Assembly (NCBI GenBank): GCA_001887945.1
Contig: LDOQ01000328.1
Location: 1 to 42,959, forward strand
Origin: Spraguea lophii
Taxonomy: Eukaryota > Microsporidia > Spragueidae
DNA: 42,959 bases
Direction of reading: 5' to 3'
Shown here: piece by piece, positions 1 to 37,000 of the stretch
How the letters are laid out: the number at the start of each line of letters is the position of its first letter
Position numbering within the stretch: position 1 is the stretch's first letter
Notes under the pieces: generated by a model
Told to the model about the DNA's origin: nothing
The model's database searches: none
The model's input: only the letters and a program-made list of their open reading frames with translations
Translations under genes and position numbers: made by a program

Positions 1-398
1 CTTGTACTAACTGGTTTCACTACAGATATGCATTAATCTCATCTTACCTTATGCTCCAGAGTGTTAGGATTTTGCGTCTGGTGCGCGTCGCCGCCCCCAC
101 TTCCAGCTCTTAAGGAATTCCCAGCCTCTTTCGTTGCATAGTATTGGCCGAGTCACAAATCAATACAGGGATTGCAACTACATCAGCTAAACACTACTTT
201 GATCTAGTAGCGGGGCCGTCATACAAGGCACAGCTATGCTGCGCTATCGAAACCTCACCCACTCAACAACCTTTTTCTTCTCTTCTGCGTTTATTATTAT
301 TTTTTTTTTGTTTTGAAAATTTTTTCTGGATGAGGGATTCGAACCCGCCAGGCTTGGGGTTTGGTTACCACCCCACGACCACTGGGCCAGGCGGGACT
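1..398 (-). repeat. tRNA-derived SINE, copy A (cut by window start)
   Basis: This stretch is the reverse complement of the element at 16505-16969, with roughly ten differences over about 400 bases, so the copies are young. The tRNA-like head lies at 327-398 and carries intact B-box (GGTTCGAATCC) and A-box (TGGCCCAGTGG) sequences on the minus strand. The window edge removes the 3' part. It is clearly more GC-rich than its surroundings. Reading frames inside it are not genes. The tRNA origin is inferred from the two boxes; the acceptor stem no longer pairs, so it is not a working tRNA. Confidence 0.8.
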
Positions 399-16029: not shown

Positions 16030-16500
16030 TTAAAAGAAAATAAATTCATTAAATAATCTTTAATAAGTCCAATAATACGGTAAATGAATATTTTTGTTTA
16101 TATGGTAAAGAATGTTCATTTATATAATTTTTTATTTTTTTATTTCTATTAGATCCTCTTGTTTTTAAAAAATCTTTCATGTGTTCCCATTTATTATCTA
16201 TGTTTTATGTATGGATTACAGGATTGTTTGGATTTACAAAATTCCTGGAGTGATTTACGTTGTAATGGATATAGTCCATTTCGATTAATGAATTATACTA
16301 TCCCCACAAGTCAAAAAATAGTTGTTCCTTTTTTATATTGTGAAATATAATTTTTTCAAGTTTTAATGCATTCTTTTAGTATATATTTCAAAAAACAATC
16401 TTTTGTCTTCTTGCATATTCCTCCAATACACGTTGTTTTTTTGTTATTCTCCCTTATTATATTTGTTTTTGTCCGGTAAATTTCATTTATTTCAATTATT
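16030..16500 (-). pseudogene. Merlin/IS1595-type transposase relic B
   Basis: The region is a diverged direct copy of 1100-1650. On the minus strand the segment around 16165-16290 reads YNVNHSRNFVNPNNPVIHT, then a stop codon, then NIDNKWEHMKDFLKTRGSN, which is the C-terminal block of Merlin transposases (NH-F-P...HTQ-IE..W). The in-frame stop replaces the expected Gln. It is a dead copy. The tRNA-derived repeat begins right after it at 16505. Confidence 0.65.
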
Positions 16501-16504
16501 AATT

Positions 16505-16969
16505 AGTCCCGCCTGGCCCAGTGGTCGTGGGGTGGTAACCAAACCCCAAGCCTGGCGGGTTCGAATCCCTCATCCAGGAAAATTTTCAAAACAAAAAAAA
16601 AAATAATAATAAACGCAGAAGAGAAGAAAAAGGTTGTTGAGTGGGTGAGGTTTCGATAGCGCAGCATAGCTGTGCCTTGTATGACGGCCCCGCTTCTAGA
16701 TTAAAGTAGTGTTTAGCTGATGTAGTTGCAATCCCTGTATTGATTTGTGATTCGGCCAATACTATGCAACGAAAGAGGCTGGGAATTCCTTAAGAGCTGG
16801 AAGCGGTGGGCGGCGACGCGCACCAGACGCAAATCCTAACACTCTGGAGCATAAGGTAAGATGAGATTAATGCATATCTGTAGCGAAACCAGTTAGTACA
16901 AGCTTAAATTCGCTCGAGGAATCGAAGGTCACAGACCATGGTAGGCCGCAACCGGTCAGGAAGCTTTGA
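16505..16969 (+). mobile_element. tRNA-derived SINE, best full-length copy (B)
   Basis: The element starts with a tRNA-like head (16505-16576) that has a consensus A box TGGCCCAGTGG (16514-16524) and a consensus B box GGTTCGAATCC (16558-16568), 33 bases apart, the internal promoter of RNA polymerase III genes. An A-rich stretch (about 16580-16610), then about 350 bases of GC-richer unique body, then an end near 'aagctttgataaataaaa' follow. The acceptor arms do not pair, so it is not a tRNA. No protein is encoded. Other copies: 1-398, 25590-26046, 36551-37000, 35450-35790, and a 3' fragment at 24447-24511. No clear target-site duplication can be read because the flanks are A/T. Confidence 0.8.
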
Positions 16970-17347
16970 TAAATAAAAGATTCATTCGTAAAAAAAATAA
17001 ATTATTTACTTTAATTTTAATTAATGTATAATAAAATATATTTCTTATTAAATATTTTAATAGCTTTTAGAAATTGAAAATGAAAGTTCTTTTAAATATC
17101 AAAAATATTTAAATTCAACATTTAAATAAAAAATAATATTTAACAAACATTTAGTTTCTTTCTACTAAACATATTATTCCATCCTATAGATCATTATCCC
17201 TTTGTCACAATTACGTATTAAATAAATAAATAATTAACTATGGAAAAACATAATAAATTTTTAATATGACAGTAAGTACTGTGGATACTTTATTATTTTT
17301 TATAAATTATTTTATATTTTTATATTTTTAATGTTTGTTTATGCTAT
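16970..17347. other. AT-rich spacer, nothing recognised
   Basis: About 380 bases between the SINE and the coiled-coil gene, with no open frame, RNA or repeat seen and no CCC signal before the next ATG. Confidence 0.4.
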
Positions 17348-24446: not shown

Positions 24447-24511
24447 AGGAATTAAAGGTCATAGACCATGGTAAATTGTAACCAACCAAGAAACTTTTAT
24501 AAATAAAAATA
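24447..24511 (+). repeat. SINE 3'-end fragment
   Basis: About 65 bases match the last part of the SINE at 16917-16969: 'ggaattaaaggtcatagacc' versus 'ggaatcgaaggtcacagacc', then 'atggta', a C/T-decayed core, and 'aaataaaa' at the end. The 5' head and body are missing, as in 5'-truncated retrotransposed copies. A reading frame crossing it (24445-24708, minus) is not a gene. Confidence 0.7.
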
Positions 24512-24802
24512 TTATTTAAAAATAAAGTAGCATCACGAAAATTGAGTAGAATAATTGTAAAATATAAAATGATTGTATTGTAATAATAATAGTGATACAT
24601 TTTATTTTCTTTATTAAACAAATAAAAAATTATGTTGCTCTTTAAAGATATGAAATTACAGTTATTTTTTATTAATATAATTACTCCTCTCTCCCTCAAT
24701 CCATTCATTTATCAAACCTTCCATATGAATATGAATGAATATTCAATGTTATATTTTTACAAAAATATTATTTTATTAAAAATCAATTTCTTCAAACTTT
24801 GT

Positions 24803-25589: not shown

Positions 25590-26046
25590 TTGTTTAAAGG
25601 AACTTTCTAACTGGTTACGGCTTACCATAGTTTATGGCTTTTCGTTCCTAAAGCATATCTAAGTATGTACTAATTATTTTCATTGTATATACACATAAAT
25701 CACATCTTATATTATGTTTCAAACGTTGAGATTTTATGGATGATGCAGGTCTACGTCCCTCTCCCGGGTTTTCAAAGGTTTCTATATTTTTTCTTGCCAT
25801 AATATTGATCGAATCACAATCAATACAGGTATTGCAACACCCCAGTTAAACGCCATTTTAATCCAATAAAGGGGCGTGTCATAAGACACAACCAATACTG
25901 CGCTATCGAACCTTCACCCATTCAACAGCCTCTCTCTTCTGCCTTTTATTATTCTTATTTTTTGGAAATTTTTATGGATGAGGGACTCGAACCCGCCAGA
26001 CTTGGGGTTTGGTCACCATTCCACGACCACTAGACCAAGTGGGACT
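25590..26046 (-). repeat. tRNA-derived SINE, copy C (moderately decayed, near full length)
   Basis: The minus strand follows the copy at 16505-16969 from head (25975-26046) to tail (about 25590-25660). The head keeps a good B box (GGTTCGAGTCC) and a changed A box. The body keeps the landmarks 'caatacaggtattgcaac', 'aaaggggcg...tcata' and 'gcgctatcgaaccttcaccc' but has lost many G/C bases. It is an older, probably silent copy. Confidence 0.75.
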
Positions 26047-35449: not shown

Positions 35450-35790
35450 TATTCTCAGAATGTTTCCACGTATTGTGGTCTACTGCGATCTAAAATTATT
35501 GGTTATTTCAATCAATTCGTACTGATCGTATTCGTTACATATATACATTAATCTCGTCTTAACTTAGGTTTAAGTGGGTTATTATTTTATGGACAGGGTA
35601 ATTATTATTCTTTTACTCTTAATCAGACATTAACCTTATTTTTGACATAGTCTTGATCAAATCATTATCACAAGAATTGTAAATAAATCAATTAGGCATT
35701 ATTTTAATTTAACAGTGGAATTATTATATAAACATAATTACATTATTTCGCATTCATTCAACTTTCGTTCTTTTATCTCAATTACATTAT
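35450..35790 (-). repeat. tRNA-derived SINE, copy D (strongly decayed)
   Basis: The minus strand still follows the SINE body: 'acatatatacattaatctcgtctta' (landmark split here as acatatatac / attaatctcg / tctta), 'gatcaaatcattatcac', 'gaattgtaaa', and 'cattcattcaacttt'. Most C and G positions have become T or A. The tRNA-like head is no longer recognisable. It lies between Clf1 and HP1. Confidence 0.6.
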
Positions 35791-36401: not shown

Positions 36402-36550
36402 CATTAAAAAATTTTTTATGGTCAACCCTATTTATCGATAAATCTTATTTTACAGGATTAAATTTAATATATGTAATAATTTATTACAGTTTATATTTGT
36501 ATGGCAATCGATATGAAATAATTTGAATCGTAGAGTATTTATTTTTAATG

Positions 36551-37000
36551 AACCTTTTATTTATCGAAGTTTCCTAGTCGGTTGCGGCCCATCATGGTCT
36601 ATATTTTTTGGTTCCTAAAGCGCATTTAAACGTGTATTAACCGGTTTCACTGTAGATATGCATTGATCTCATCTTATCCTGCGCCCCAGAATGTTGGGAT
36701 TTTGCGTATGGTGCACGTCGCCGCCTTCTTTAGTTTTTTAAAGATTCCTAACTTCTTTCTTGGCATAATATTGACTGAGTCACAAATCAATACAGGGATT
36801 GCAATTACACCAGCTAAACACTACTTTAATCTAGTAGCGGGAACTTTACACAAGGTATAACTAATGTTATACTATCGAGCCTTCACCCACTCAACAACCT
36901 TTCTCTTCTATTTTTTGTAAATTCTTCTGGATGAAGGATTTGAATCCGTTAGATTTGAAACTTGGTTATTATCACACAGCTACTTAGCTATACAGCCTTA
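36551..37000 (-). repeat. tRNA-derived SINE, copy E (decayed, full length)
   Basis: The minus strand runs through the whole element: tail at about 36551-36610 ('gttgcggcccatcatggtct'), body landmarks 'acaaatcaatacagggattg' (near 36783) and 'cactactttaatctagtagc' (near 36818), and the head at 36929-37000, where the B box has become GGATTCAAATCC and the A box is lost. A minor frame in the body (36663-36860) is not a gene. Confidence 0.75.

What the first reader, a model, noticed from the sequence alone, without database searches (positions are those of the whole stretch)
16505..16969. A tRNA-derived SINE family in a microsporidian-like genome, with young and old copies
Seen: six related pieces (1-398, 16505-16969, 24447-24511, 25590-26046, 35450-35790, 36551-37000), four of them with a head carrying A and B boxes of Pol III or their remnants. 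Copies A and B differ at only about ten of 400 positions, so the family moved recently. Known: such a head joined to an unrelated body is the definition of a SINE. Such elements are, as far as I know, not a standard part of microsporidian descriptions. Inference: an unseen LINE supplies the reverse transcriptase.
Basis: partly seen in the sequence, partly recalled or inferred. Interest (0 to 1): 0.82.

Follow-up and report, generated by a model that had tools for sequence, protein, structure and literature searches.

The report
Active SINE with its partner LINE
This small parasite genome, which looks microsporidian, carries more than a hundred recently copied short retrotransposons (SINEs) with tRNA-type promoter boxes, and their tails match a longer retrotransposon in the same genome that probably supplies their copying enzyme.

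Summary
The element is a SINE of about 490 nt that runs to about 16997, not 16969. One search scored 40 of 414 candidates and found 40 near-complete copies at 96-100% identity in 5.27 Mb. Tail patterns hit 136 and 151 times; reversed-pattern controls hit 0. The 41 copies aligned average 1.2% from their majority sequence. Exact duplications of 10 bp or more flank 30 of 40 copies, against 15 of 1905 mismatched flank pairs. The head has A and B boxes 44 nt apart, as in the genome's own tRNAs, but Rfam's tRNA model does not match it and its parent tRNA is unresolved.

Its 3' end matches the SINE's in two blocks (43 of 48 nt in the first) around about 96 nt that the SINE lacks. No complete LINE was seen in the assembly.

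This is a new member of a known kind. Pol III transcription and LINE dependence are inferred, not shown.

The parts
16505..16997 (+). Young full-length SINE copy with its A8 tail
   Evidence: 2.1% from the majority sequence of 41 copies
16505..16579 (+). tRNA-like head
   Evidence: Boxes at tRNA spacing; Rfam tRNA model gives no match
16514..16524 (+). A box TGGCCCAGTGG
   Evidence: box consensus recalled
16558..16568 (+). B box GGTTCGAATCC
   Evidence: box consensus recalled
16580..16650 (+). A-rich linker; holds the only T run of 4 or more inside the element
16651..16912 (+). Unrelated body, origin unknown
   Evidence: No Rfam match; no match to the LINE pieces apart from the tail
16913..16968 (+). 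LINE-derived block 1; the tails of copy L010 and LINE C8 fold into the same two hairpins
16969..16989 (+). LINE-derived block 2, ending next to the A run
1..398 (-). Young SINE copy, cut by the contig end
25578..26045 (-). Old SINE copy with head, about 72% identical
36538..36988 (-). Old SINE copy with decayed head, about 78% identical
24447..24517 (+). Tail-only piece; no convincing duplication (6 nt)
35514..35587 (-). 74-nt remnant of the SINE body
   Evidence: E 2e-5

Best explanation
A SINE family, recently mobile. Shown: dispersed near-identical copies, variable A tails, target-site duplications mostly of 9-16 bp, A and B boxes at tRNA spacing, and a 3' end in two blocks homologous to the 3' end of a LINE in the same genome. 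Inferred: RNA polymerase III transcribes it from the internal boxes; the LINE's endonuclease nicks AT-rich DNA; the LINE's reverse transcriptase recognises the shared tail and A run and copies the SINE RNA into the nick (target-primed reverse transcription).
For: 40 copies at 96-100% identity; 136 tail hits with 0 in the control; 125 distinct young sites compiled from the listed rows. Divergence from the majority sequence 1.2% mean, 0.2-2.9% range, 41 copies. Duplications: 30 of 40 copies at 10 bp or more against 15 of 1905 controls, 32 of 40 against 121 of 1905 at 8 bp or more. Box spacing 44 nt against 42-45 nt in 26 of 35 own tRNAs in which both boxes were found. LINE: coding part at C72:3-1376 resembles LINE proteins over 99% of its length and LINE-1 ORF2p. 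SINE against LINE tail at C21: score 55, 200 shuffles mean 21.5, maximum 31, blastn E 3e-8; 43 of 48 nt after the junction and 10 of 28 before it. Two short LINE copies have duplications of 12 and 10 bp. Own tRNA genes are followed by T5 or longer in 18 of 20 cases looked at, while the SINE has nothing above T4 except one T5 in 41 copies.
Against: Rfam's tRNA model matches neither the young head nor the old heads searched. A T4 run just after the head (38 runs in 41 copies) could end Pol III transcription early. The decayed LINE tail at C1 does not match the SINE above shuffles. The LINE coding part falls below Pfam's cut-offs. No complete LINE was seen, and the middle of the LINE is missing from the assembly. 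Pair counts on the tail hairpins do not exceed shuffles. No RNA data.
Confidence: 0.9

Rival explanations
1. A MITE or other non-autonomous DNA transposon, moved by a transposase.
For: Short, AT-rich-flanked, dispersed, non-coding; microsporidia have many DNA transposons (PMC4202319, passages).
Against: Duplication lengths vary from 9 to 16 bp and follow an A run of variable length; polarity, promoter boxes and the LINE tail are not expected of a MITE. Terminal inverted repeats were not searched for separately inside the element.
Confidence: 0.02
2. Retrocopies of one structured non-coding RNA gene (a retropseudogene family), with no true SINE cycle.
For: The origin of the body is unknown, and RNA genes such as RNase P RNA lie near some copies.
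Against: No Rfam family matches the element. The tail comes from a LINE. Recurrent shared variants (for example three common forms in the listed rows) suggest several source copies.
Confidence: 0.05
3. Segmental duplication or an assembly artefact.
For: Several contigs begin at the same point inside the element, as expected when an assembler breaks at repeats.
Against: Flanks are unrelated, and duplications pair within each copy. A paralogous repeat without the SINE aligns across the joined flanks of the window copy.
Confidence: 0.01
4. A SINE that moves by poly(A) alone, the LINE tail being a relic of its origin (relaxed recognition, as for Alu with L1).
For: Every intact 3' end seen stops in an A run. 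Hairpin pair counts show no covariation beyond shuffles.
Against: SINE and LINE tails are 90% identical over 48 nt next to 36% upstream, and the first block survives in several copies that are diverged elsewhere. Recent common origin could also explain this.
Confidence: 0.3

Closest known systems
Chlamydomonas SINEX-3_CR with L1-1_CR, and maize/sorghum SINEs with L1-clade LINEs (PMC3747384, passages seen)
   Same: SINE and LINE share the 3' end (about 80 nt in Chlamydomonas), and both end in poly(A).
   Different: Other organisms; here the SINE tail lacks about 96 nt from the middle of the LINE's 3' end. The LINE's clade here rests on best hits only.
Mg-SINE (Magnaporthe) with MGR583, and SINE2-1_BG (Blumeria) with a Tad1 LINE (rows under 'Fungi' in the table of PMC3747384, passage seen)
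   Same: tRNA-promoter SINEs of fungi with a LINE tail.
   Different: Different LINEs and hosts; sequences not compared here.
SINE class of Nosema bombycis (PMC3614468, table passage)
   Same: Reported from a microsporidian: 28,669 bp, 0.18% of the genome.
   Different: The passages that I saw give a class total only, with no family, structure or partner LINE; not compared.

Membership tests
SINE | Many dispersed copies at unrelated sites | tested here: met
SINE | Internal Pol III promoter (A and B boxes) | tested here: met
   Exact boxes, 44 nt apart; sequence only
SINE | Head homologous to a small RNA gene | tested here: inconclusive
   No Rfam tRNA match; several own tRNAs score alike, z about 7
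SINE | A-rich or simple-repeat 3' end and target-site duplications | tested here: met
SINE | Short and without a long reading frame | tested here: met
   About 490 nt; no frame of 150 aa or more there. Shorter frames not examined
SINE | Transcribed by Pol III | not testable with these tools
   No RNA data
SINE/LINE pair with a shared tail | 3' end derived from a LINE of the same genome | tested here: met
   the decayed C1 LINE tail does not match the SINE directly
SINE/LINE pair with a shared tail | LINE enzyme uses that tail | not testable with these tools
   Needs a copying assay
L1/Tx1-type LINE | AP endonuclease plus reverse transcriptase, grouping with L1/Tx1 in a tree | tested here: inconclusive
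   Protein hits named 'Transposon TX1' and LINE-1; Pfam endonuclease and RT models match at E 0.0016, below cut-off; no tree built

The most novel reading that the evidence does not exclude
A microsporidian L1-like LINE reads a specific two-hairpin tail (stringent recognition), and its enzyme tends to stop or switch template at the 5' edge of that tail. Such a switch joined the LINE tail to a tRNA-headed RNA and so made the SINE. Support: the two short LINE copies with visible 5' ends, at C8 and C6, start within 1 nt of each other and exactly at the SINE/LINE homology junction, and the tail-only piece at 24447 starts within 5 nt of it. Against: 0 of 10 further SINE candidates were truncated there, so the case rests on three pieces.
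Probability: 0.25. Interest if true: 0.65.

Novelty: new member of a known kind. Interest (0 to 1): 0.5.

Why it matters
Microsporidia are textbook cases of genome reduction. A recently amplified SINE with an identifiable partner LINE in a 5.3-Mb genome shows the full parasite-of-a-parasite arrangement there. It adds a fungal-lineage case to shared-tail SINE/LINE pairs that end in poly(A), a type discussed for green plants and algae (PMC3747384, passages), and so bears on whether stringent tail recognition is old in L1-like LINEs. Because insertions are dated by divergence, they could also serve as strain markers.

Tried and rejected
SSU rRNA search to name the organism: none found with RF02542.

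Targeting of tRNA genes: rejected. 3 of 57 tRNAs have a listed young SINE within 1 kb, 3.5 expected; only 125 listed sites were used.

Parent tRNA: not resolved. Rfam identity for the body: none.

Truncation hotspot in SINE copies: 10 candidates fetched because a pattern upstream of the junction was not listed; 10 of 10 carry the upstream part after all.

Tail hairpins: the LINE tail folds better than shuffles (z -2.4, 2 of 200), the SINE tail not (z -0.8, 42 of 200), nor the whole SINE (z -0.94). Pair counts equal shuffles: 89.4% paired against 89.3%. So a conserved RNA structure is not shown.

Other reverse transcriptases as the source: telomerase at C2 and LTR (Gypsy-like) elements at C73, C44, C48 are not LINEs. 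L064 reads as a decayed LTR piece and L065 as an unclassified decayed piece (by eye).

Viral contigs with a tail pattern: 0 matches. Prokaryote, phage and plasmid collections were not searched for the SINE.

Literature: searches. Word counts for 'SINE' were 0 in PMC4202319, PMC12449221 and PMC13174016 (passages only). The library holds open-licence papers only, so I do not claim that nothing is in print.

Full report
What is there. The element at 16505 is one of a family. A whole-genome search scored 40 of 414 first-look candidates and returned 40 near-complete copies at 96-100% identity plus three partial ones. A 24-nt tail pattern with up to 2 mismatches hits 136 times and an internal tail pattern with up to 3 mismatches 151 times, with 0 hits for the reversed patterns; the second can also hit LINE tails. 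A pattern just upstream hits 117 times. From the listed rows I compiled 125 distinct young sites. Aligned over 41 copies, divergence from the majority sequence is 1.2% on average, 0.2-2.9% in range. Copies at about 72-78% identity in the window show that the family is also old.

Ends. The copies do not stop at 16969. They share ...TTTGATAAATAAAAGTTTCATTCGT and then a variable A run. After the A run comes a repeat of the sequence just before the element. In an exact-match test on 40 copies (41 less one whose 3' flank was not fetched), 32 have a duplication of 8 bp or more and 30 of 10 bp or more; among 1905 pairings of flanks from different copies these numbers are 121 and 15. With slightly more slack 32 of 41 have one of 9-16 bp, most often 14 or 13. 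At least one of the 8-bp cases (L044) is only A-rich tail. The window copy itself has only 7 exact bp. The target is AT-rich like its surroundings, with T favoured just before the duplication.

Head. A box TGGCCCAGTGG and B box GGTTCGAATCC (consensus recalled) lie 44 nt apart, start to start; in the genome's own tRNAs in which both boxes were found the spacing is 42-45 in 26 of 35, and 51-55 in the other nine. Yet Rfam's tRNA model does not match the young head or the old heads searched, and the best own tRNAs (Ser, Arg, Leu; z about 7) do not separate. So the promoter boxes are kept, but the tRNA fold is not recognised. A T4 run follows the head in nearly all young copies: 38 runs of T4 or T5 in 41 copies, none elsewhere in the element. 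In 20 own tRNA genes the first run of four or more T's within 40 nt is T5 or longer in 18. Read-through is therefore plausible but not shown.

The LINE. A frame at C72:3-1376, cut by the contig end, aligns over 99% of its length with a metagenome protein that has endonuclease domains (31% identity), with proteins named 'Transposon TX1' from Smittium culicis, and with LINE-1 ORF2p structures. Pfam alone is weak: no family at 0.001, endonuclease and RT models at 0.0016, below cut-off. The C-terminal part and 3' end of a LINE lie at C21. The C21 tail matches SINE nt 409-465, score 55 against a maximum of 31 in 200 shuffles; the decayed C1 tail does not match the SINE above shuffles, though it matches the C21 LINE. 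Searching with the C21 tail gave 40 scored of 105 candidates, of which 12 places are LINE rather than SINE. Their alignment shows one common 3' end: block 1, about 96 nt, then ATAAATAAA(A/T)TTTTCTTAT...A(n). The SINE has block 1 and block 2 directly joined. Identity is 43 of 48 nt after the junction and 10 of 28 before it; the spacer is 95-98 nt in the three LINE copies measured. A decayed LINE at C48 carries a young SINE inside its stretch with its own duplication. No complete LINE was seen; the RT C-terminal part was found at two places.

How it works. Most likely Pol III makes the SINE RNA and the LINE's enzyme takes it by the shared tail and A run. Tail recognition is the inferred step. 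The tails of one SINE copy and one LINE copy fold into the same two hairpins, but only the LINE's is better than shuffles, and pair counts show no covariation beyond shuffles. Relaxed, poly(A)-only use stays possible (rival, 0.3).

A bolder point. The two 5'-truncated LINE copies with visible starts (C8 and C6, with duplications of 12 and 10 bp) begin exactly at the junction where the SINE's LINE-derived part begins, and the window piece at 24447 begins within 5 nt of it. If the enzyme often stops or jumps there, that would explain how the SINE arose. Ten SINE candidates fetched to test this were not truncated, so the support is three pieces.

Place among known things. Shared-tail SINE/LINE pairs are well known; pairs with L1-clade LINEs ending in poly(A) are described for a green alga and for grasses, and two fungal pairs appear in the table of PMC3747384 (passages). 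For microsporidia, PMC4202319 lists LINEs, LTR and DNA elements with no occurrence of 'SINE' in its text; PMC12449221 and PMC13174016 likewise have none; PMC3614468 gives a SINE class of 0.18% for Nosema bombycis. The organism here is unnamed; its Pol I subunit is 45% identical to the best hit and 42-44% to several named microsporidia. The finding is a well-supported new member of a known kind.

Noticed in passing
16034-16504 and 1199-1666: A second dispersed repeat of about 470 nt or more, 25 candidates genome-wide at 69-82% identity. The window SINE sits in it (joined flanks align across the insertion), and young SINEs lie inside or next to it at C18, C2, C1, C34 and C47 by coordinates; no formal enrichment test was run.
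   Followed up: partly
L038:243-476 (C1, minus strand): Nuclear RNase P RNA gene (RF00009, 72 bits, E 4e-19) close to two SINE copies.
   Followed up: no
L062:3721-7395 (C2, minus strand): Telomerase reverse transcriptase with an RNA-binding domain and very long Asn-rich stretches.
   Followed up: no
L058, L061, L059 (C73, C44, C48): LTR-type (Gypsy-like) retrotransposon frames: protease, RT, integrase pieces. Observed only.
   Followed up: no
L074:169-241 (C63): A SINE-like head (profile E 2.4e-9) with no SINE body found beside it in the stretch held; perhaps a second family.
   Followed up: no
L149 (C40:3192-3231): A SINE head begins right after the T6 run downstream of a tRNA-Asn gene.
   Followed up: partly
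G000, whole assembly: No microsporidian SSU rRNA match with RF02542. Several contigs (for example C15, C25, C54, C56, C60) start at the same point inside the SINE, which looks like assembly breaks at the repeat.
   Followed up: no
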